Source: Owenia fusiformis
Taxonomy: Eukaryota; Annelida; Polychaeta; Sabellida; Oweniidae
Reading direction: 5' to 3'
DNA: 64,000 nt
Assembly: GCA_903813345.2 (NCBI GenBank)
Contig: CAIIXF020000007.1
Coordinates: forward strand, 8,871,730 to 8,935,729
Numbering within the stretch: the stretch's first letter is position 1; the number at the start of each line of letters is the position of its first letter. This document shows, piece after piece, positions 35,812 through 51,170 of this stretch. Under the pieces are notes generated by a model that searched no databases, was not told where the DNA came from, and was given only the letters and a program-made list of their open reading frames with translations. Position numbers and translations under genes: made by a program.

Positions 35812-36826
35812 TTAAGGCGACGCTATATTAAATAATAAGTACAAAAAATGACTGCCATATTTTTTTGATAAAGACACATGTTTTTAAAATCTGTTTACCT
35901 TGTATATGAATTGTGTATCTTGACTAATGAAACATGTCAAAGTTAACATCACACATAAACGCATTTTTCCAAACTATGAATTGGAGGTGCATGGATCCCC
36001 AAAGCTAGCATGAAGAGTGCGAAGTGAGGCTAATTTTTGAAAGTTTCAAGGAGTAGCCTTGCAACAGTCACACATTTGCAAGAGTCTAAAATTTCCACAA
36101 ATCATCTTACCTTTCCCAGGAACAACGAAGGAGCATGAAAATGTGCATTTCTTGCATTGTTAGAGTATAATAAACCTCAAACCATTGTAAATTCCAAATA
36201 TTTCATGTCCACATTTTGTTTGCCGGAACTACTTCTAGACTTCCTGATTAATCCTCATGCAAGTTTTGTGACTACACCAAGTGGCATGGATTATCACTTG
36301 TATGTTTTATCTATTACAGTGTAATTATCATGATAGATACATGATAGAGGCTTTATGAATGATAAACAATGGAAACATGAATGAAGATAACTCTGGACTA
36401 AAAAATAGTTCCAGGAAACAAAATGGTGGACATGAAATATTTAGAATTCACAATGGTTTGAGCTTTATTATACTCTAACAATGCAAGAAGTACACATTTT
36501 CGTGCTCCTTCGTTGTTCCTTGGTAAGGTAAGATGATTTGTGGAAATTTTAGACTCTTGCAAATGTGTGACTGTTGCAAGGCTACTCCTTGAAACTTTCA
36601 AAAATTAGCCTCACTTCGCACTCTTCATGCTAGCTTTGGGGATCCATGCACCTCCAATTCATAGTTTGGAAAAATGCGTTTATGTGTGATGTTAACTTTG
36701 ACATGTTTCATTAGTCAAGATACACAATTCATATACAAGGTAAACAGATTTTAAAAACATGTGTCTTTATCAAAAAAATATGGCAGTCATTTTTTGTACT
36801 TTTTATTTAATATAGCGTCGCCTTAA
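35812..36826. mobile_element. Palindromic TTAA-flanked element, copy 2 (inverted relative to copy 1)
   Basis: The same termini and arms as 28220-29234, but the asymmetric centre is reversed. Here CAATGGAAACATGAATGAAG and CTGGACTAAAAAATAGTTCC follow the ACTTCCTGATTAATCC segment, the mirror of copy 1. Differences are few and mostly single bases. TTAA at both ends. Confidence 0.9.
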
Positions 36827-38133: not shown

Positions 38134-41100
38134 ATGTTGTCTTTAAAATTCATCGTGCTTTTACTTGTTTGTGCTAGATTTGGCCTGTGCAATGTATCAA
38201 TCGAGCTCCCGGAGATAACACTATTACAACCTAAAGGAATCCGTATGGCCGTCAAAGGTATGTATGGCAATAACATATATATAAGCATTGGAACGAAAGC
38301 ATTGTCACGAGGCCCGGTCTCTTGCTGGGATTCTAAATTATACCAAATTAAGGACAGGGTGCATGTTGGGAAATTTTCTGCATTCCTCAATTGAGTCACA
38401 TGTTATTTTTCAAACAAGAATAACTCCTTCCCCACATTGTCTACATCTTCCAAGTTTGCACAAAGAGTGCACTTATGTGCCTAGAAAAGCCTTGTGAGAA
38501 GGTTTGTTTTGTAAAATGTAGAAAAAATGAGAAAATTCAGTGAAAAAAAATTCTGAAAATTTTCTGATTTTTTTCACTGAATTTTCTTGTTTTTTATACA
38601 CTTTATCAAAACATTCTTCTCACAAGTCTTTTCTAGGCACATAAGTGCACTCTTTGTGCAAAACTGGAAGATGTAGACAATGTGGGGAAGGAGTGATTCT
38701 TGTTTGAAAAATAACAAGTGACGCAATTGAGGAATGCAGAAAATTTCCCATCATGCACCCTGACCTTAATAAAACAAAACATATATGCACTGCATTGGTT
38801 TTGAATCGCACATAGCTGGGCAAGATGTGTCAATTTCAGCCAGTCCGAACACAGTATCTCATATAACTGCAGTGCATTATAACCAATCACTGCAGGGCAT
38901 TATATCACCAATCACTGCATTCAATGTCACTTTTTAAGGTAAGGGTGCATGATGGGAAATTTTCTGCATCGCTCAATTGAGTCACGTGTTATTTTTAAAC
39001 AAGAATCACTTTTCCCCACATTGTCTATATCTTCCATTTTTGCACAAATAGTGCACTTATGTCCCTAGAAAAGACTTGTGAGAAGAATGTTTTGATAAAT
39101 TGTATAAAAAACAAGAAAATTCAGTGAAAAAAATCAGAAAATGTTCAGAATTTTTTTTCACTGAATTTCCTCATTTTTTATACATTTTACAAAACAAATC
39201 TTCTCACAAGTCTTCTCTAGGTACATAAGTGCACTCTTTGTGCAAACCTGGAAGATGTAAACAATGTGGGGAAGGAGTAATAATTGTTTGAAAAAAACTT
39301 GTGACTCAATTGAGGAATGAAGAAAATTTCCCAACATGCACCCTGGCCTTAAACACTTGTCAGGGTGACAACTTGACTCTCCAGATAGAAATTGATACCT
39401 TTGCCAACTTGACCCTTGCAGTTTCAGTTTCAGTGAAAATATGTTTTTTCAAAAGCAGACCACTGCATCTTTTGAGTTTTTGCATGATATTTTTCTGTAC
39501 TCCCGTACTGGAATATGAACGAATATATTGATTGAAAAATAGGTGTGAAAATCCCCATGTTAAACCTATGGGGGAAAACAAGGAAGTATGAATTTGTTCC
39601 TCCGCGAACTGCACCCTGGGAAATATTTTGACCTTGTAAGGAAAATCGTGCGTGTCTCCTCTTTTGAAGAAGGAACAACGAATACGACTATTTAAAAAAT
39701 TATTTGCCACCAAGCCTTTAAATTTCCAAACTTGCCGGTACATAATTACCTTAGTTTTGAGAAAATGTTCTAAAATGACATCTTCAGGTTTTCAGGTAGC
39801 TTCAAGGAGGATTGGCTCCCAGAGTGCAACATCGATATTTTTGTCATATATGGGCATGTCGTGATTACAAAATTCTAAATCAAACAGTCGCCATTTTGTT
39901 AGCCTCAACATGTGAATTTTGGTCTTATTTCTAAACGACATTTCGACGTTTTCATTGTTGGAAAATATCGAGTTTCGACTTCTGGGAGCCATTCCTCCTT
40001 GGGTAGCTTCGTATATCCAGAAATGTAATAGCTTCCTTTTTGGAGTCTCATGTTATTTCCAGGTATATATTATAAATTACTGTATTCTAAAAATGGTAGA
40101 GTGCATCTTTACACCGGAACACCCTGACAACTGTAAAGTCAGATACCGTTGTCACAAAATGGCGGACGTAACCGTCGCTTCAACTTGTTTCACATTTCAT
40201 TGTTGTCGTCGCTAATTCTGTGCATGTAAGCTTTGGTGAAAGTGTAATGTATGAAATCCCAATTTCGATCAAATGTGGTCGTGAATCACCACAACACACC
40301 GTCTTCCATATCATCAACGACAACGGAAATCTGAATTTGAAATAATCAACAGAGACAACGGGCCATGGTAAGATATGACAACGGACAACGGATGCATTAT
40401 ATTGGAACATAAGAAAATGACGACATGAACTATACACTTTACCGTTGTCTTTATAAATACCGTTGTCATCCCAATTTTACAGCACATTTGACCCACATTT
40501 ACCGTTGTCATTTATATAGCATCAGTTGTCCTGTGTCATATTTTGATCGGTAAAATTGAAGCCTTTATTTCGATGATAGAACATATTCAACTATACGATG
40601 AACAGAAAGACACTTTAATTGAGTGTTGTACAAAAGGAATTTAATTTAGGTGCTCTATTAAACGTGCAGTTTATAGAAATCGAATGCGAACCTATGGCCG
40701 TCATTTGTGACAACGGTATCTGACTTTACCGCTGTCCGGGTGTTCCGGTGTGATCTTTTAGTATCGCACAAAGAGTACATTAATGTACCCCGATTACTAG
40801 CATTTAATTATTTTCTTATTAGACCCAGGGCCAGGGACAACGACCCTTGTTGCATTCCACTACAGCATCAATACTCGCCTGGCAGGAGTAGATCCAGGGG
40901 ATTGGAACTACGATGTCAGGAGTAAAACAGGTATTCGCGAAAATTAATATTAATCTCATCGGGAAGTTAAAAATGAGTTTTTCCTCTATAATTATGTAGA
41001 ATCTTTCTTCCTTCTTTCTGTAGAATAACATTGTTGATTTGTAAAAAAAGATTTCAGAAGTGTTATATGATTTTCTTGCAAGTAAGGCATATTTGTACAA

Positions 41101-41608
41101 ATCAGGCTCAAAATAAAAAGCATGGGGCTCATTTTAAAAACGAGGCATATTTTTAAGAAGAGGGCTTTACAAATTGATTGAGGCATTGTTCACCCCCAAA
41201 ATAAAACCAGAAATTCGACACCATTTCGATAGCGATAATTAAATGTCAGAAATATAACATCTTAAAATTCAAACTATATATACGTGTTTACGTATTTACT
41301 ATTTTCACAACCTAAACATGTACGAAAGTTGTTTAAGCGATGCATTTGTATGGGCGATTGGTCAAACGTACAGGTTGGCGTTTCGATTTATATGCAAGCT
41401 TAAACTTCCTAATATCCTAAATATTTACCTTTGTCAAATTATATTTGCATGACGTATGCTGTAAAACATGTAATTGCAGGCGGACTTTGGGTACACGAAA
41501 ATCGACTGGTGGATGTTCAACCAGGAGATACAGTTTATTACTGGATATACGCAGTTGTTAATGGCTTGGGGTGGCAGGTCACAGACAAATCGTATACAAT
41601 TCCAAATG
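38134..41608 (+). CDS. Beta-1,3-glucan-binding protein, N-terminal exons: signal peptide plus CBM39
   Basis: Exons 38134-38257, 40823-40930 and 41480-41608 join in phase 1. They encode a secretion signal (MLSLKFIVLLLVCARFGLC, hydrophobic core ~5-15) followed by a CBM39-type glucan-recognition domain. Motifs seen: LLQPKGIRMAV, LVAFHYSIN, DPGDWNYDV, GGLWVHENRL, QPGDTVYYWIYAVVNG. These match the P-x-G...AFH..IN...G.W..D...G.W....L..GD.iyYW pattern of GNBP/beta-GRP N-terminal domains. A linker exon probably follows at 42985-43035 (phase 1, VNLHTVPTLTLTPTGYR), and a less certain one at 43121-43210. Downstream GH16 exons on the same strand suggest one secreted multidomain protein recognising fungal or algal beta-1,3-glucan. 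Intron 1 is crowded with foldback elements. Confidence 0.88.
38348..38769. mobile_element. Palindromic TTAA-flanked MITE, copy A
   Basis: TTAAGGACAGGGTGCATG at the left and CATGCACCCTGACCTTAA at the right. The arms meet near 38560 at AGTGAAAAAAAATTCTGAAAATTTTCTGATTTTTTTCACT. Lies in intron 1 of the glucan-binding gene. A second copy is at 38934-39352. Confidence 0.9.
38934..39352. mobile_element. Palindromic TTAA-flanked MITE, copy B
   Basis: TTAAGGTAAGGGTGCATGATGGG at the left and CCCAACATGCACCCTGGCCTTAA at the right. The arms contain the same GCACTTATGT...CTAGAAAAGACTTGTGAGAAG and CCCACATTGTCTA segments as copy A, ~165 bp away. Confidence 0.9.
39793..40014. mobile_element. ~220-bp foldback in intron 1
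   Basis: GTAGCTTCAAGGAGGATTGGCTCCCAGAGT at the left is mirrored by ACTTCTGGGAGCCATTCCTCCTTGGGTAGCTTC at the right; the arms continue inward through ATCGATATTTTT/GAAAATATCGA. Non-coding. Confidence 0.75.
40111..40752. mobile_element. ~0.64 kb foldback, relative of 34501-35021
   Basis: ACACCGGAACACCCTGACAACTGTAAAGTCAGATACCGTTGTCACAAAATGGCGGAC at the left and CGTCATTTGTGACAACGGTATCTGACTTTACC...GGTGTTCCGGTGT at the right. It shares ends with the element upstream of the P450. It ends about 70 bp before the acceptor of exon 2 of the glucan-binding gene. Confidence 0.88.
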
Positions 41609-42164
41609 GTAAGTTAAATGTTATATCGAGGGGGTTTGATACTACCTGTTACAAAGCAGGGGGAAATTGCTCCATCTTTACTAACCTGACAAAAAAGTTA
41701 GTAAAGATGGATTTCTTACTAACCCGATATGTTACAAAGGCATAGAAACAGGAACGGTACAATTATTAAATAAACTTGTTGACCTTGACCGTATTGTTCC
41801 TTTTTTGTTCTTTTGTCGTCCATTTCTAAATCGACTTGCATGAGAGGTCACTAGTATGGTAAAAATGATCACCCAAGCAGTAGGAGTCATTTGTAACCCA
41901 ATAATTAGTGAGTAAGTCCAATGATTGGCAAATTATTTGAAGTACAACCGCACCTTCTCTGCATGTGTATGTAAATTGTGGACATGCTCAAAATGATAAG
42001 TTCTGAGAATGCTCTATCGTGAGATATTACAGCCTTCTCTCAGTATCCTTCTAGTTGTGCATAGCAGAGATGGTCTGAGTATCAGAATGAGAATGCTCAG
42101 CTCAGAATTCAACTAAGGTTTATTTAATTAGTAACCAGAGACATTGCTGTAATATTTTTGTCTG

Positions 42165-42456
42165 ACACTGCCACATATATGTAGATGTGTCCACATTGCT
42201 ACAGAGATGTAGATGTGTCCACAACCACACTGCTACAGAGATGTAGATGTGTCCACACTGCCATATATATGTAGATGTGTCCAGACTGCTATAGAGATGT
42301 AGATGTGTCCACACTGCCATATATATGTAGATGTGTCCACATTACTCCAGAGATGTAGATGTGTCCACATTGCTACAGAGATGTAGATGTGTCCACACTG
42401 CCACATATATGTAGATGTGTCCACACTGCTCCAGAGATGTGGATGTGTCCACTGCT
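42165..42456. repeat. 28-bp minisatellite, about ten units
   Basis: GTAGATGTGTCCACA alternates with CTGCCATATATAT or TTGCTACAGAGAT variants, giving ~28-bp monomers arranged partly as 56-bp dimers (one unit lengthened to 34 bp near 42210). It lies in the intron between the CBM39 exons and the next linker exon. Minus-strand ORFs with DTSTYIWQCGHIYIS repeats are translations of this array and not genes. Confidence 0.92.
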
Positions 42457-42984
42457 ACTTTCATCTATGAAATGTGGCTCAAAACACTGATTAGTAGGCC
42501 TAAATAATGGGACTTTTGTGCTTTCTTCAACATAAATGTTGAGTCCGGACTCCGGACTTCGGACTTCAGCGATTTATTACTTAGTTTATTTATTTAAAAT
42601 AAAAATGATGAAAAATAGAAAGATATCTTTATAAAGATGTATTGCAAATAGATCAATACATTTACATCTTTACGTTATCAAAAACGTCAACAATTTTATT
42701 GATAAATTACTTCATATTATAAAACAAGATCGATTAATTTCATAACTTACTGTTAAAGCCATGCTCTTCCTTTTTGTAACTTGCAAGGTAGACGCCTTTA
42801 ATATATAAATAAGAATGGCCCATGGATTAGTTCTTTGTTTTGTATCAAAAGAAGATTATAAGTTAGAGTCTAGCACCATTGGTCAATTACTGTGTCACAA
42901 CGTAAAATCACACTTTTAAACGTAAAAATATAAACATGAATAATATAAATAATACATGTACATACAATATATTTCCCTACACAG

Positions 42985-43035
42985 TCAATCTCCACACGGT
43001 ACCGACGCTGACGCTGACTCCCACCGGCTATAGGA
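42985..43035 (+). CDS. Probable linker exon of glucan-binding gene
   Basis: 51 nt between a CACAG acceptor and a GTATGT donor. It continues the phase-1 frame from the CBM39 exon ending at 41608 and encodes VNLHTVPTLTLTPTGYR, a Thr/Pro-rich linker of the type found between glucan-binding and catalytic domains. Supported by splice sites and phase only. Confidence 0.65.
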
Positions 43036-43120
43036 GTATGTCACCAATCTTTTGTCATTTAACCTAAATGGGAGTATGTGTTTGTATTTTCTCAATGGAA
43101 ATCTTAATTTGAGAAATTAG

Positions 43121-43210
43121 ATAACTGTGAAAAAGAAGGAAAGAAGTGTAAGCGCATTTATGATATAACAACGATTTTCATTATCTTCAATCCCGAGGAA
43201 GTTCCAAAAG
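43121..43210 (+). CDS. Possible second linker exon of glucan-binding gene
   Basis: A 90-nt open segment between ATTAG and GTAAAG sites, in phase with the exon ending at 43035. It encodes NNCEKEGKKCKRIYD... and ends ...NPEEVPKG. The phase match on both sides is suggestive, but the sequence has no family motif, so it could be chance. Confidence 0.35.
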
Positions 43211-43377
43211 GTAAAGCATGTCTTTAAATCATGTAGTGAAATCGAAAATATCAGCTTGAAGCAGTGATATTAAATTAATGATGTATATTGAAATAGAAAA
43301 TATGTTTTTTGGTCTCAAGCAAATTGAGTTTTACTGAGTATTCTTTGCATCTGATTAGTACAAATCTTAATTGAATC

Positions 43378-43492
43378 ATGTATCTGAAAGTGCTATTAAT
43401 TGCATTCCTTATCGGACATGTTCATTTGGAGGAAAAAACTGAGAAGCCCATTAAATGTAAGAGAAGGCTTATTGACAAACTTGATGAACGAC
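43378..43492 (+). CDS. Putative signal-peptide exon abutting the assembly gap
   Basis: ATG-initiated open frame MYLKVLLIAFLIGHVHL... with a clear hydrophobic core, continuing into EEKTEKPIKCKRRL before the run of N begins. It could be an alternative first exon that makes a secreted GH16 protein without CBM39, or the first exon of a separate gene. It cannot be resolved because the following exon (expected to match the 46552-46670 module) must lie inside the gap. Confidence 0.4.
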
Positions 43493-43992
43493 NNNNNNNN
43501 NNNNNNNNNNNNNNNNNNNNNNNNNNNNNNNNNNNNNNNNNNNNNNNNNNNNNNNNNNNNNNNNNNNNNNNNNNNNNNNNNNNNNNNNNNNNNNNNNNNN
43601 NNNNNNNNNNNNNNNNNNNNNNNNNNNNNNNNNNNNNNNNNNNNNNNNNNNNNNNNNNNNNNNNNNNNNNNNNNNNNNNNNNNNNNNNNNNNNNNNNNNN
43701 NNNNNNNNNNNNNNNNNNNNNNNNNNNNNNNNNNNNNNNNNNNNNNNNNNNNNNNNNNNNNNNNNNNNNNNNNNNNNNNNNNNNNNNNNNNNNNNNNNNN
43801 NNNNNNNNNNNNNNNNNNNNNNNNNNNNNNNNNNNNNNNNNNNNNNNNNNNNNNNNNNNNNNNNNNNNNNNNNNNNNNNNNNNNNNNNNNNNNNNNNNNN
43901 NNNNNNNNNNNNNNNNNNNNNNNNNNNNNNNNNNNNNNNNNNNNNNNNNNNNNNNNNNNNNNNNNNNNNNNNNNNNNNNNNNNNNNNNNNNN
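43493..43992. other. Assembly gap (500 N)
   Basis: A run of exactly 500 ambiguous bases, the usual placeholder for a gap of unknown length. It probably hides the first exon of the first GH16 domain, equivalent to 46552-46670. ORFs reported across it are meaningless. Confidence 0.98.
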
Positions 43993-44015
43993 ATGATCCC
44001 ATATTTATTTTTCAG

Positions 44016-46293
44016 AACTGGGAATTCCAAGTTTATACTCCTGAGGAACGCAATGTATACGTGAAAGACAACACTCTCTTCATACGTCCTGTAAGTTAAA
44101 AGAGGAGTACACGCAATTTGTCACTAGATTTGTTGGAAATGATAGCCCCAGTCGGTATTTCGTAGTAACTTTTAGAAGTGGGTTATGTTGCCATTTAAGA
44201 CCATGCATCTTCTATTTTTTTCAAAAGGTGCCTTCTTTGGAACACAACACGGTGAAATTTCAATTTGTAAATCTTGTTTTCAAAATTCTCCTAATCATAA
44301 AAAAAAAGTTGTATGGCAATATGAATATTTTGTTTGCATATGTCCTTCGAGAGCTTAAGCTAATTTTTTGGTTGTAGACACTCACCGCAGATAGATTTGA
44401 CGAGAATTTTGTAAGATATGGGACAATGGATGTGAACAGTAAGTGAGCAACTTGTACGACATAAATACAAGCGAAGGCAGGGTAGATGGAAATGTAAATC
44501 TTATATGATATGTGACCCGCAAGGTTCACTTTATGTGTAACGGATGCATGTTTGGTAAAACACAGTGCTGCGTCAAAATCAAGGTATCCTTAATGGTCGT
44601 TGTCAAGTCGTAAATTCTAAATACAATTGAATGTAAACTTTTGCAGAATTGTGGGGACAATGTACCGATGACCAGTGGTGGGGATGTTTACGATCGGCCA
44701 ATGGAGGAGTAGTAAATCCGATAATGTCCGGAAAGATACGAACAAAAATGTCCTTTAAATACGGACGTGTCGAGGTAATCTAAATAGTTGTAGATTTAGA
44801 ATTCTATACTTCTGTCTGGCCTACGTCTGTTTTCTTCAAAGATGAGGACGGAAGACAAATATTCACGGTTTGTTTTTATCACCAAGTGTGGATGACAAAT
44901 GTGGAATCGTTTACATTCAGGTTGTTGCGAAGATGCCAAGGGGAGACTGGATATGGCCAGCTATATGGCTCATGCCCCAGCATAGCGAATATGGAGGTTG
45001 GCCAAGGTCAGGCGAGATTGATGTGTGCGAGAGTAGAGGTAAAGATGTATTGTCTTCTTGCAATTAATGCAAGACTAGACGTGCAGGTCTTTTTTATTTC
45101 TGTTACTGTGTGAGAGTCGGTGTAACTGTCTGTTGTCAATTTTTTGTTGATGTGTTAGAGTGTTTTTTGTTCATTTGCCAAGTGCTTTGATTTATGCGAG
45201 ATGAGACGGCAGATCTTTTTCCTGTTGATGTGGGACAGTAATTGTATTTAGATCTTATGTAAACTGTATTAATGGGGGTTGAGAAGTGAATATCCTCTAA
45301 GTCTGGTGGGTTGTCTATGTATAGAGCATTTACATTTTCCTACATGCTACCTTGTAATTCCTTGTAGGTAACGAAGATTATGGAAATATCGGTGTTCAGG
45401 AGGCTGGCGTGGCACTTCACTGGGGAACACCAGGGAATGACAGATACCTTATGACAAACGGCCAGAAGTAATTATAAATACGCTTTGATATAGAACCGTT
45501 TCTGATCCAATATGTATTTGCATACATCAAACTAAACCCACGACAATGTTCCAATATCAAATCCATGTAGCAGAGTCTTTATTGAACAATTGTGTCTGCA
45601 CTTTGATAACAGCAAGCTATGTTAAATGTTCGTTTGGTCCAAGGGCATCAGTTCAGTATCTAATTAAATGATACTCAGATTTGATCGTTTGAATTGATTT
45701 TCAGGCGTTTGTCGGGGAAAAACTTTGGTGAAAAGTTTGTGAAATACACATTAGACTGGGACGAATCCGGCATCAAGGTTTACTACGATGATGAACTCAT
45801 TATGAATGCACCAACACCAAGTGAGGGTTATTACAGATATGGAAATCTCCCTGAGAATCCTTGGCAAAATGGAGGAAAAGCTGCGCCATTTGACAAAGAG
45901 GTACCCCATCCATAGATGGACTACATGTTTCCAAAAGTTTAAATTTGCACTTTGAAAGAGAGCTTCATATACCCATTTGTACTGACCCTCGAGCATATAG
46001 GGCCATACAATATTCGGTGTACGTCAATTTTCCACTTCCAATGATTTCTTCAAATAAGTATACCTTTAATCAATTTCAGTTTTACTTGATCCTGAATGTG
46101 GCTGTCGGAGGCACCAACGGTTACTTCCCCGACAGTGTTCTGAACAGACCCAACCCCAAACCATGGAGTAACACATCTCCACGCGCATCGGCTGAGTTCT
46201 GGGATCGCAAGAACGACTGGTATTCAACATGGAATGGCGAGAACACGGCAATGCAAATAAAATCTGTGAAAATATGGAAAGAGGTATCTGGAG
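44016..46293 (+). CDS. First GH16 (laminarinase-type) domain exons
   Basis: Exons 44016-44090, 44378-44438, 44647-44774, 44921-45038, 45368-45467, 45705-45900, 46080-46293, all GT/AG with compatible phases. They encode a GH16 beta-glucanase-like domain: NWEFQVYTPEERNVYV, TLTADRFDENFV, MSGKIRTKMSFKYGRVE, DWIWPAIWLMP, GEIDVCES, LHWGTPGNDRY, FYLILNVAVGGTNGYFPD. The ExDxxE catalytic motif is intact (E at 45014-45016, D at 45020-45022, E at 45029-45031), unlike insect GNBPs that have lost it, so hydrolysis of beta-1,3-glucan is likely. The frame ends at a phase-1 donor (46293) that joins 46552. If that donor is not used, the frame stops four bases later at TGG TAG. The first exon of this domain is lost in the gap. 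Confidence 0.92.
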
Positions 46294-46551
46294 GTTGGTA
46301 GATTTTGATATTTACATTTTGGATGTTTTGATTTTATGAAAGGTATTTTGGAGAAGAATTAATCTCACGCGTTTTATCATTGGAAAGTGACGACAAATCA
46401 AATCTATTAGTAACATTGAATAGATGGGAAAAGGGTCATGCCAATAATGCCGTTTCAGCTAGCTACGGCTTATAGAAAGTCCATTTTGAATAAAAACTTA
46501 ATTGGACAGCAGCCCCTACGGTAGTCACATGCATTTATATATATAATTTAG

Positions 46552-49500
46552 GGGAAGGAGTAGTTCCAACCTCTACACCCTCCAATGGTATGCAATTGAT
46601 ACTAGATGACAACTTCTCTACTCTTGATCTGAACAAGTGGCGTCATGAAGTAACGGCAAGTGGAGGAGGGGTATGGTAAAGTTTTGATATATTTCTAGAT
46701 GACATTTTGTCTAACACTATGTCTTATTTGACCTCAGTACACTCATTTTCGTCTACTTTTAGATATACTGCTACTTTTGGAGTTCACTTACACGCTTAGT
46801 CTTATCATTATACAATCAGATTACACCTATGAAAGTGCAATTAAATGCACCCTGTTGAGCCTATGTATTGTCGTACAAACTATAAGCTTACATCATACAC
46901 GTTTAATAAGATAATTAACACTGTACGTTCAGTAATTAATATACCTTAAGATACACAATGTGTCAACGTGAAGCTGTAGCTATATTTTCACGTTCGCGTT
47001 GATGACAACGTATACGTGAACTGAAATGCGAAGCTGTAGCTATATTTTCACGTTCGCGTTGATGACAACGTATATATACGTGAACTGAAATGCGTTTCAC
47101 GAAAAGGGGTTCCTTTTGAAATCATAAGGTCTCTATTGGCAGGTGAATTCGTACCTGTATCTATTTGCCAAATAGTTATTCGTATTTATCTTTTTATTAT
47201 TTGCCCCAGAACTGGGAATTCCAAGTCTACACCCCAGAGGAACGAAACGTGTACGTCAGAGACAACACGCTGTTCATTAAGCCCGTGAGTACTAATAGAG
47301 TTCAATCAAAATTATAGAATCCTCCTTAATGCCTTTTCTTTCTTTAGTTTTGTATACATATTCATTCAATCTTAAGATTGGCATCTGCACACACTCTACC
47401 AATTTTTTTTGCAGACATTGACAGCAGATAGATTCGATGAAAATTTTGTGAAGTATGGCAAGATGGATGTTGAGAGTGAGTATATGATGAAAATAAAGTA
47501 TTAGATTCAGCTTAATGATGAAGATTTAAACAACATTAGTAACTCAACTACAAAAAAACATCAAAGATACAATTCGAATACTTCATAAGATTATCTAATT
47601 ATTATAATATCGATCAGTTGAGCATGTCACGACGATATATTCCAGAACTGTGGGGTAAATGCACGGACAGTCAATGGTTCGGTTGTAACAGACAAGGAGA
47701 CGGATCTAATATCCTTAACCCAATCATGTCTGGCAAGATTAGGACCAAAGTATCTCTGAAATACGGCAGAGTTGAGGTACGTTGATATGATGCATGTAGC
47801 TGCCACATACGGAAGAATACTGATTATTTACCTTTCGTGCACGTTTAACGATGTAGTTATGGATAATATCCAGCATACATGCATGTGTACATCTCCTGTA
47901 AAGTGTAGTATTTTTGCATCTAGACAAAACTGATCTTCCATAATTTGACTAAAATGCATGACATTGCATACTTTTTATTTATCTTTTATTAATTATGAGA
48001 AAACATAATAAAAAGGTAAAAGAAAAATATGTACATATTCTCTGAAGATAACACTTGATTTCGATGTGACCTGGCGACCATCATCCATTTTTCAATTTAG
48101 ATATGAGGTCTTATTTCGTTTAGGGCAAATGTTAAAAACTAGTAGAAACCCGGGTAAGGCGTCTTACAAAAACCGATCGGTATTGTAATACACTGCACAC
48201 TTAAAGCGCCTAACGACTTAATATGCCCTTTACTAGTGACAAGGGTTCTTGGAGTTTTAGAAAAGCGCTATGTAAAACCGCAATCGTGATTACACTTAAT
48301 TCTTAAACCTGGTTAAAACCGAAGAAGCTTTTGTAAAACGCCATGTGTAATTCCAGCAATTGTTGTAAAATGTATTTGCCGTTAACTTCTCATTAGGTGG
48401 TAGCAAAAATGCCCAAAGGTGATTGGATCTGGCCGGCAATCTGGATGCTGCCGGAGTGGAGCCACTATGGCGGATGGCCGCGTTCTGGAGAAATAGACAT
48501 TTGCGAAAGCAGGGGTAAATTTCAGTTAGACATATTTCTCGGTTTCTCATGAGATTCACTTGTTCATGTAAGTTTTTTATTGCATTGGTGCCCCTGCATA
48601 TATTTAAAATTAGTTCGCTGAAATGAAAATCCCATTGGTATTCAAGACAACAAAGGCTTAGGGCATGATCCACTCTGTTGTCTATGTTTCATGATGTATG
48701 GGAAACCCAGTATTCTAGTTTCCGGATTTATGTGTAGGCTTAATCTGTTAATACGAGGGGTTATCAATAAGTAATGGACGCATTTTTACACAGATGCTTT
48801 TTATAGACCAATCCCTTCGATTTTCTTACCAGTGATACATCATTCAATTATCCATCAACTCTGAAGATTTGGAAACAAAACATGTAATATCTTTTGATAT
48901 AGCTTTATTTCCGTGAAGGATGTATAGGTACCCCGGGACCGACATTTACGTCAAACATTCTGAAGCTATTTTAGCTTGTTTAACATGCAATGCAGTTGAA
49001 TGCAGGCTGAACAAAACAAACCATTATGGTCATGAATTACCCAATTTCGTTATGCCATAGTTGATTTTGAATATTTCATCATCACTATGTGGTATTCATG
49101 CCACATTCATTCCACAGGGCCCTCTACATAGGTTCCATCAAGTGCTACATGTACACAATTCCTCATCCTCTTAATTCAAGATTGTGAGACAAGGCTGAAT
49201 CCATTCTCTGACATGGTAGCAAGAAGCAGTTGCACGGGTTGTTTTATTTCATCAATATCAATAAACATGCATCCTTTTTCTATAGAAATAAGTAGTATAG
49301 AAATAAATAAGTCACACGTGAGCAGATCTGGACAAAATGGTGCATTGGCTAAGGGCTCAATTTTGAGGTCCAGGGATATTGTTTTCTGAACATTTTGAGA
49401 TCTGTGGGCAGGTGCATTGTCCATATGGAGCAGGGTGTTCCCTTCTCTCACCACCCCTTTCTTCAACAATGCTTTCTCAAATTGACCTGCAAACCCCTTC

Positions 49501-51170
49501 CATACAACACTCTGACATAACAATACTTTCTGTTTATGTGTTGACCAGTCAGCAAAGTATTTCAAACAACACAACACATGTTGCATATGAAAAGTTTAAA
49601 TCTAACTGAAATTTTCCAAACTGGCTGAAAACTGAATATGTGACGTAAATGTCGGTCTCGGGGTACCTGTACCTCCTTCACGGAAATAAAGATATATCAA
49701 CATGTATTTTATATTTTGTCTTCAAATCCTCAGAAATGATAGATAATTGAATGATGTATCACTGGTAGGAAAACCAAAGGGATTGGTCTATAAAAAGTAT
49801 CAGTGTAAAAAAGCGTCCATTACTTATTGATCACCCCTCGTAAGTGTTCAAAACATACATCGAAAATTCGTAAATCTCAACATTTTGTTTTGGATTGATG
49901 TGTAATATTAGCTTAATCGATTTGTAAGGCTGTGTTTTAGTCACCACCACCAGTGTGACATGTTGCAGTCTCCAACTTTTTTGTGAACCGTGTTCGGCGT
50001 CTGTAACAAATGGTAGGTGGCGACATTTTGTATGTTAATGCCTTGTTTTGTACTGCGTTTCACTCTCTGAATTCAGGTAATAATGACTATGGGAGCATAG
50101 GTGTCCAAGAGGCAGGGGCAACACTTCACTGGGGAACACCTGATAACGACCGATACACCATGACGCAGGGACTCAAGTAAATATAGAGAACCAGTCAGAG
50201 TTCCCTGTTCACATTGACGGATAATTGAATTTGGCACATTTCAGTTTTTCTTTATCTGACTTGCTTCACTGCATCTGTAAAGAGCACACCTCGCAAAGTT
50301 TGCTCGGCCTTTGACAAAAATATGGATAATTAGTTTAGCAATGCTTCTTTATGTTTCTCTTTTGGGTTTCTTATTAAATCGGTTCTTTCCGCAATTCAAA
50401 GTTGCTAAAGCTTTGAAATACATAGTCGCCATTTTCACATGTATGCAAACTATTGCAGAAAACTGTCAGGACAGAACTTCGGTGATAAATTCATTAAATA
50501 CACTACTGATTGGGATGCAACTGGTATCAGAGTCTACTTTGATGATGAACTTGTTCTCAATGCGCCAACACCCAATAATGGCTACTACAGATACGGAAAC
50601 CTACCTTATAATCCCTGGACGCAAGGGGGAAAAGATGCTCCATTTGATAAGGAGGTATTTTTTACAGATTTTAACAATGTGCGCAAAAAGATCTATGAAT
50701 TTAGCAACCTGAGATTTATATTCATACCAAGATGTAATAAGACAACAAAGAAGATACTTTCTTTTTTCTTTGATTTTGACCTCAGATTTTTACCATCCTT
50801 GGTAATTGCTATGTTAACAGTAACACATTTTGTCTTGTCTACTATATATATGTATGTGATTTGTCTAGACCCGATCATTGTTTACTCTCCGGAATGTATG
50901 TTTACATCCGTTGCTTTCGTTAATTGCCTGCTTTATATGAACATAGTTTTACTTTTTCAGTTTTACTTGATCTTGAATGTGGCCGTTGGTGGAACTAACG
51001 GGTATTTCCCTGACAGTGTACCGAATATTCCCAGGCCAAAGCCATGGAAGAATAACTCACGATTTGGCCCAAGGGACTTCTGGAACAAGAAGAACGATTG
51101 GTACCAAACTTGGAGAGGCGAAGAGGCAGCCATGCAAATTAAATCTGTTAAAATATGGAAAAAAGTTTAA
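46552..51170 (+). CDS. Linker plus second GH16 domain exons, gene 3' end
   Basis: Exons 46552-46670, 47210-47284, 47415-47475, 47646-47776, 48397-48514, 50077-50176, 50459-50654, 50961-51170 (TAA at 51168-51170). The first exon supplies a P/T/S linker (GVVPTSTPSNG) and the start of a GH16 domain (LILDDNFSTLDLNKWR). The rest parallels the first GH16 domain exon by exon (75, 61, 131 vs 128, 118, 100, 196 nt), so the domain arose by tandem duplication with its introns. The catalytic motif GEIDICE is intact (E at 48490-48492 and 48505-48507). The protein is expected to be secreted and to bind or cleave beta-1,3-glucan in immunity or digestion. An exon-level phase match to 46293 argues for a single CBM39-GH16-GH16 polypeptide. 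Confidence 0.9.
46966..47095. repeat. Tandem duplication of a ~63-66 bp unit
   Basis: GAAGCTGTAGCTATATTTTCACGTTCGCGTTGATGACAACGTATA...CGTGAACTGAAATGCG occurs twice head to tail, the second copy with an extra TATA. Intronic, between the linker exon and the next GH16 exon. Confidence 0.9.
48754..49840 (-). mobile_element. Mariner-like (Tc1/mariner superfamily) transposon, decayed
   Basis: Terminal inverted repeats of about 100 bp start CGAGGGGTTATCAATAAGTAATGGACGC and end GCGTCCATTACTTATTGATCACCCCTCG, flanked by TA duplications. Internally the minus strand keeps part of a transposase (49586-49176) with the HMDNAPAH motif and a downstream CPDLLTCDLF, fitting the second and third catalytic Asp of a mariner DD(34-35)D triad. 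The N-terminal DNA-binding part is missing or frameshifted, so it is inactive. Inserted in the GH16-2 intron 48515-50076. Confidence 0.9.
49176..49586 (-). pseudogene. Mariner-like transposase fragment
   Basis: A 136-aa open remnant carrying the LLHMDNAPAHRS and NAPFCPDLLTCDLF motifs. The conserved first Asp and helix-turn-helix region are not in frame here. Flanked by its own inverted repeats. Confidence 0.85.

What the first reader, a model, noticed from the sequence alone, without database searches (positions are those of the whole stretch)
38134..51170. Secreted CBM39-GH16-GH16 protein with both catalytic sites intact
Exon phases link a signal peptide and CBM39 glucan-recognition domain to two consecutive GH16 domains. 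The phase-1 donor at 46293 joins exactly in frame to the linker exon at 46552. Both GH16 domains keep ExDxxE, while many arthropod GNBPs have lost it. Known GNBP/laminarinase proteins usually carry a single GH16, so a double catalytic unit with one binding module would be unusual. Six internal GH16 exons match in length (75/75, 61/61, 128/131, 118/118, 100/100, 196/196 nt), showing intra-gene domain duplication with introns.
Basis: partly seen in the sequence, partly recalled or inferred. Interest (0 to 1): 0.75.

Follow-up and report, generated by a model that had tools for sequence, protein, structure and literature searches.

The report
Tandem GH16 glucanase domains near CBM39
An invertebrate locus carries two intact beta-glucan-cutting enzyme domains in tandem that are probably spliced into one protein, but the claimed link to the upstream glucan-binding domain runs through an assembly gap in which another immune-type gene begins, so that part is unproven.

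Summary
Three exons (38134-41608) encode a signal-like segment and a CBM39 domain (Pfam E 9.5e-20). Two GH16 units follow, A (44016-46293) and B (46552-51170), both with ExDxxE. The stated exon lengths and phases hold. The phase-1 A-to-B splice is well supported: its donor is as strong as typical family donors, and 0 of 10 paralogous last exons carry one like it. No signal-bearing start was found for B. The CBM39-to-GH16 link is not shown. The gap is exactly 500 N (43493-43992), probably a placeholder; GH16-A's first exon is missing; and the sequence left of the gap is the head of a fibrinogen-related-protein gene. CBM39-GH16 is nevertheless the commonest architecture here (6 of 10 modelled GH16 paralogues), usually joined in the same phase, so linkage is plausible. 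Intact catalytic residues are ordinary. The doubling is old: 77% identity, synonymous sites saturated. Verdict: A-B fusion about 0.75 likely; full CBM39-GH16-GH16 about 0.45. A modest new domain arrangement in the GNBP/beta-1,3-glucanase family, pending cDNA.

The parts
38134..38257 (+). exon C1: start codon, hydrophobic signal-like segment, start of CBM39; ends phase 1
   Evidence: signal judged by eye only
40823..40930 (+). exon C2: CBM39 (phase 1 to 1)
   Evidence: similar splits in paralogues
41480..41608 (+). exon C3: CBM39 end; phase-1 donor
   Evidence: in 5 of 6 CBM39-GH16 paralogue models a phase-1 intron at or within a few residues of this place leads to GH16 exon 1
42985..43035 (+). 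doubtful linker exon L0 (or a terminal exon running to a stop at about 43067)
   Evidence: acceptor at the 4th percentile of family acceptors, 418 of 817 AGs in 36-52 kb score as high; one search shows no paralogue match over these residues
43208..43492 (+). head of a fibrinogen-related-protein (FReD) gene: 5' flank and first exon (ATG 43381), cut by the gap
   Evidence: 13 other genome matches to the exon; 68-72% DNA identity to 5 of 5 fetched members, 5' flank included; FReD exon downstream, PF00147 E 2.5e-47 for L016
43493..43992 (.). run of exactly 500 N, the only one in the window; GH16-A exon 1 is missing here
44016..46293 (+). GH16 unit A, exons A2-A8 (44016-44090, 44378-44438, 44647-44774, 44921-45038, 45368-45467, 45705-45900, 46080-46293); GEIDVCE
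46294..46301 (+). in-frame read-through of A8 to a TAG stop (alternative end ...SGGW*), with AATAAA at 46489
46552..51170 (+). GH16 unit B, exons B1-B8 (46552-46670, 47210-47284, 47415-47475, 47646-47776, 48397-48514, 50077-50176, 50459-50654, 50961-51170); GEIDICE; stop TAA

Best explanation
This is an old member of the animal GNBP / beta-1,3-glucanase family in which a phase-1-bounded linker-plus-GH16 block stands twice. The two GH16 units are spliced into one secreted polypeptide through the A8-B1 phase-1 junction, giving a Thr/Ser/Pro linker (...KEVSGGEGVVPTSTPSNG...) between two laminarinase-type domains that keep their catalytic residues. The upstream CBM39 exons are probably its 5' end, supplying secretion and beta-1,3-glucan anchoring, so that two catalytic domains would act on one bound glucan (food laminarin or microbial wall). 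Shown: domains, open exon chains, catalytic residues, phases, splice-site scores. Inferred: transcription, the A-B splice, the CBM39 link, secretion, activity.
For: A8 donor GAG|GTTGGT scores 8.43, above the family median of 8.29; 7 of 894 GTs in 36-52 kb score as high, four of them donors of this locus's own exons (C1, A2, B4 and A8 itself). 0 of 10 paralogous GH16 last exons, and not B8, have a phase-1 donor of that score in the 66 nt up to the stop; chance expectation 0.033 per exon. B1 is homologous to the family's internal linker/GH16 exon, which follows CBM39 after a phase-1 intron in 5 of 6 paralogue models. Both units are under constraint: 77.3% aa identity over 295 codons, pS 0.876 (saturated), dN 0.166, no stops in the joined exons. 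ExDxxE is kept in both, and the K/W/W/W/D spacing of scallop Lcf is kept in both (residue list from PMC7551256 passage). CBM39 accompanies GH16 in 6 of 10 modelled GH16 paralogues.
Against: No transcript data. A stop lies within 8 nt after the donor and an AATAAA at 46489, so A8 could be terminal. A second donor-like GT in A8 (after 46283, score 7.59, phase 0) joined to B1 hits a stop after three codons, so a splice there would not give the fusion. In the 11 paralogue loci 117 of 4323 GTs, true donors included, reach the A8 score. The donor matrix rests on 89 automatically placed introns, some surely wrong. The CBM39-GH16-A junction is not in the assembly, and a fibrinogen-related gene head lies between them on the same strand. 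The window's CBM39 has no supported nearest relative (56% to C2b over 80 columns). Among one search's 91 matches no other locus shows two GH16 units.
Confidence: 0.55

Rival explanations
1. Three or more genes: a CBM39-only (or otherwise completed) gene at 38134-43.1 kb, a fibrinogen-related-protein gene starting at 43381, and a GH16-A/GH16-B gene whose start (perhaps with its own CBM39) lies in the gap or elsewhere because the scaffold join is inexact.
For: 500-N gap; FReD-family first exon with homologous 5' flank at its left edge; no FReD match on C7:8.87-8.94 Mb in the capped list; CBM39 occurs without a nearby GH16 match at C12:6.58 Mb; CBM39-only GNBPs are described, TcGNBP2 (PMC12645860, passage) and RfGNBP8 (PMC13414360, passage).
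Against: The one terminal exon I looked at for a CBM39-only gene, L0, has a poor acceptor; others were not scanned. Genes nested in introns are known (recalled). CBM39-GH16 is the commoner state among the modelled paralogues, 6 of 10.
Confidence: 0.3
2. Alternative GH16 cassettes: the CBM39 phase-1 donor splices either to GH16-A (ending at the 46301 stop, poly(A) near 46489) or past it to B1, giving two CBM39-GH16 isoforms with different catalytic domains, with or without a double form.
For: C3 donor, A8 donor and B1 acceptor are all phase 1; stop and AATAAA after A8; A and B differ at 23% of residues under constraint.
Against: Does not explain the strong phase-1 donor in A8 unless the double form is also made; an AATAAA in AT-rich sequence is weak evidence.
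Confidence: 0.15
3. B is a separate, 5'-incomplete duplicate gene with its own start, for example the 7-nt exon ATGAAAG at 46336-46342 joining B1 in phase 1, making a signal-less GH16, or an unexpressed relic.
For: Such a start exon exists and joins in frame (donor 5.97).
Against: It was the only ATG with a phase-1 donor in the 250 bp between A's stop and B1, and it brings no signal peptide. B is constrained: dN 0.166 and 0.170 against A and C2b with saturated synonymous sites.
Confidence: 0.1

Closest known systems
GNBP / beta-GRP proteins with CBM39 + GH16 (e.g. TcGNBP3, RfGNBP1/2)
   Same: Signal, N-terminal CBM39, C-terminal GH16 (typical architecture per PMC12645860 and PMC13414360 passages)
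   Different: Two GH16 units here; both keep the catalytic residues, reported absent from most insect GNBPs (PMC5437397 passage); CBM39 link untested here
Invertebrate GH16 endo-1,3-beta-glucanases (scallop Lcf; GH16_4 subfamily)
   Same: ExDxxE and the same K/W/W/W/D spacing as Lcf
   Different: Lcf is about 37 kDa, the size of one domain; no GH16_4 subfamily assignment was computed here
Paralogue C2b (G000:C2:15.502-15.513 Mb)
   Same: Nearly the same exon lengths and the same phases; GH16 70% identical to A and 74% to B
   Different: One GH16 only; CBM39 and GH16 exon 1 separated by a phase-1 intron of about 260 bp

Membership tests
GH16 laminarinase / beta-1,3-glucanase | GH16 profile match | tested here: met
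   PF00722 E 3.4e-13 (A), 6e-11 (B), above cut-off
GH16 laminarinase / beta-1,3-glucanase | catalytic ExDxxE | tested here: met
   GEIDVCE, GEIDICE; B aligned there to glucanase structures 7wwc and 7ww4 (A was not run)
GH16 laminarinase / beta-1,3-glucanase | hydrolysis of beta-1,3-glucan | not testable with these tools
   needs enzyme assay
GNBP / beta-GRP (CBM39-GH16) | CBM39 domain at the locus | tested here: met
   PF15886 E 9.5e-20; 3ie4 E 1.3e-18
GNBP / beta-GRP (CBM39-GH16) | CBM39 and GH16 in one transcript | tested here: inconclusive
   phases agree with paralogues but the joining exon is missing and another gene head intervenes
GNBP / beta-GRP (CBM39-GH16) | signal peptide | tested here: inconclusive
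   hydrophobic N-terminus by eye; no predictor on hand
CBM39-GH16-GH16 arrangement | both GH16 in one transcript | tested here: inconclusive
   strong phase-1 donor, ordinary acceptor, no RNA data

The most novel reading that the evidence does not exclude
One gene makes a CBM39-GH16-GH16 protein with two active, anciently diverged catalytic domains. By using its phase-1 junctions and the stop/poly(A) after GH16-A, it can also make CBM39-GH16-A or CBM39-GH16-B alone, while housing a fibrinogen-related immune lectin gene in its CBM39-GH16 intron.
Probability: 0.12. Interest if true: 0.5.

Novelty: new variant of a known kind. Interest (0 to 1): 0.32.

Why it matters
GNBP-type proteins are the textbook case of an enzyme turned into an immune sensor. 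A double-catalytic form would show that one animal lineage moved the other way, adding catalytic power, and would be a natural test of avidity or processivity on laminarin. The locus also shows how a scaffold gap beside a neighbouring gene can create an apparent multidomain protein.

Tried and rejected
Rejected: exon-length identity as proof of intragenic duplication (nearly the same lengths in C2b); recent duplication (synonymous sites saturated; the tree groups B with C2b at 87/85, below the tool's starred level, and leaves A open); linker exon L0 (weak acceptor, no paralogue match); the other A8 donor after 46283 (out of frame with B1); filling the gap from another copy in the assembly (the right-edge DNA matches only itself, unit B and the C2b-type loci on C2 and C6 at 76-85%; one search lists no further close match to B1). 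The Pfam model search of the genome gave 0 matches; I take it that single exons are too short for it, since protein queries worked. CBM39 tree: no support for the window's nearest relative. C2c (model broken at a joint of two fetched pieces) was dropped from the tree and donor training but kept in the last-exon control; C12a, which has no GH16, was scanned but not counted in the 10. Papers: searches listed no animal two-GH16 protein in the titles and abstract starts seen (20 of 56, 7 of 7, 30 of 32 papers shown). One animal paper whose text holds 'two GH16' (PMC11258130) speaks of two genes, not two domains (passage); the others were not opened for this question, so this is no proof of absence. 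Passages of PMC6403176 and PMC4346834 were seen and not needed. Searches added little.

Full report
What was checked. The window lies on contig C7 (8,871,730-8,935,729) of an unnamed 498-Mb genome, plainly an animal's from its genes. All 19 candidate exons have AG and GT borders, apart from the start and stop, and were translated. A spliced aligner fed the B protein returned the same B exons; this tests the aligner and is not independent evidence. Pfam finds CBM39 in exons C1-C3 (E 9.5e-20) and GH16 in both units. [quoted passage not shown] A was not run).

The gap. The window's only N run is 43493-43992, exactly 500 bases; such round numbers are usually placeholders for scaffold joins of unknown length (recalled, not tested). 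GH16-A lacks its first exon, the counterpart of B1. The 112 coding bases left of the gap (ATG 43381) are not part of a glucanase. The exon has 13 other matches in the genome at 53-65% identity, and DNA homology (68-72% to 5 of 5 fetched members) reaches back to about 43208 in the 5' flank (one search agrees). Two of the five fetched members show a fibrinogen C-terminal exon downstream within the stretch fetched (PF00147 E 2.5e-47 for one), and the genome-wide list places one within 5 kb downstream of each of the five. That list holds 151 matches (150 of 317 candidates scored, list cut), none near this window. So a fibrinogen-related-protein gene begins, on the same strand, between the CBM39 exons and the GH16 exons. 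Either it is nested in the intron, or the CBM39 exons belong to another gene, or the join is inexact.

The family in this genome. Eleven other loci were modelled, of which ten hold GH16. Six of those ten also hold CBM39 (C2a, C2b, C12b, C12c, C6a, C6b); in four (C9, C7b, C4, C2c) none was matched in the model or by the genome-wide CBM39 search. In five of the six the CBM39-to-GH16 intron is phase 1, at or within a few residues of where the window's C3 ends and B1 begins; C2a has no intron there. Two further loci on C6 (about 21.01-21.04 Mb), with hits nearly equal to those of C2a and C2b, and a lone last exon at C12:26.168 Mb were not modelled. Among one search's 91 matches, no locus other than the window shows two GH16 units. 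ExDxxE is kept in 8 of 9 paralogues scored; C9 has lost it, and C2c, unscored, reads GEIDLVE. In print, about 9% of GH16_4 members lack one or both catalytic residues (PMC6827312, passage), and 109 of 150 malacostracan GNBPs keep both glutamates (PMC5437397, passage). Intact sites are therefore ordinary.

The A-B junction. A donor matrix was built from 89 introns of the paralogue models. The A8 donor scores 8.43 (median 8.29); 7 of 894 GTs in 36-52 kb score as high, four of them donors of this locus's own exons. As a control, 0 of 10 paralogous GH16 last exons and not B8 have a phase-1 donor of that score in the 66 nt up to the stop; the best is 4.29 (C2a), and chance expectation is 0.033 per exon. 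The B1 acceptor lies at the 37th percentile of family acceptors; 35 of 817 AGs score as high. B1 is homologous to an internal exon; in the 250 bp before it the script found one ATG with a phase-1 donor, a 7-nt exon that would give a signal-less protein. Against the fusion stand the TAG just past the donor, an AATAAA at 46489, and a rival GT after 46283 whose product with B1 stops at once. A8 may thus be terminal in some transcripts. I put the A-B splice at about 0.75.

Age and constraint. A and B share 77.3% of 295 aligned residues, synonymous sites are saturated (pS 0.876) and dN is 0.166; B against C2b gives dN 0.170, A against C2b 0.228. The tree groups B with C2b (87/85, not starred) and leaves A open, so it does not settle whether A and B are sisters. 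The doubling is old, and both copies have been kept in frame under constraint.

How it likely works. If the chain is one protein, CBM39 would hold it on beta-1,3-glucan while two retaining laminarinase domains, joined by a Thr/Ser/Pro linker, cut or transglycosylate the chain. Both domains keep the K/W/W/W/D spacing that PMC7551256 lists for scallop Lcf (passage); of 9 paralogues only C2a and C2b keep the full pattern. Digestion or defence cannot be told apart from sequence.

Novelty. Typical GNBPs are described as CBM39 plus one GH16 (PMC12645860 and PMC13414360, passages). I found no animal two-GH16 protein in the listings, but eukaryotic protein databases were not on hand and most papers were not opened. 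If the cDNA agrees, this is a new variant of a known kind.

Noticed in passing
L007 (G000:C12:6583300-6588300): A CBM39 gene whose exon 3 ends in a Pro/Thr linker with a phase-1 donor (L007:1185); a fitting phase-1 acceptor (exon from L007:1831) opens a series with G8 (first piece E 0.011, below cut-off; second PF10162 E 2e-26) and CEMIP beta-helix (PF24606 E 5.2e-29): a candidate CBM39-G8-CEMIP (hyaluronidase-like) fusion, untested by RNA. The 10 papers shown of 260 hold no CBM39.
   Followed up: partly
window 43208-43492: Head of a fibrinogen-related-protein gene cut by the 500-N gap; 151 FReD matches in a capped list, with an array at C12:33.5-33.7 Mb.
   Followed up: yes
G000:C2:15.48-15.51 Mb and C6:21.01-21.04 Mb: Two CBM39-GH16 genes seem to stand on both contigs with near-equal hits and spacing: recent segmental duplication or a misplaced haplotype; the two stretches were not aligned.
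   Followed up: no
L003 (G000:C9:23026600-23034800): A GH16 paralogue without a CBM39 match whose active site reads GQMTLVE, so probably catalytically dead.
   Followed up: no
G000:C4:3338257-3338847: Five short matches to the start of the last GH16 exon, about 130 bp apart, ahead of the full one: a small tandem array of an exon edge. A FReD match lies nearby at C4:3333677.
   Followed up: no
window 48752-49842: Inverted arms of 209 nt (88%) inside the B5-B6 intron around a transposase-like ORF (weak DDE_3, E 0.028, below cut-off): probably a decayed DNA transposon.
   Followed up: partly
window 35812-36826 and 38347-39353: Large palindromes: arms of 413 nt at 97%, and nested arms of 284 and 203 nt at 94 and 91%, upstream of and in the first intron of the CBM39 gene.
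   Followed up: no
window 42165-42452: 28-bp minisatellite, 10 copies, in the stretch after CBM39 exon C3.
   Followed up: no
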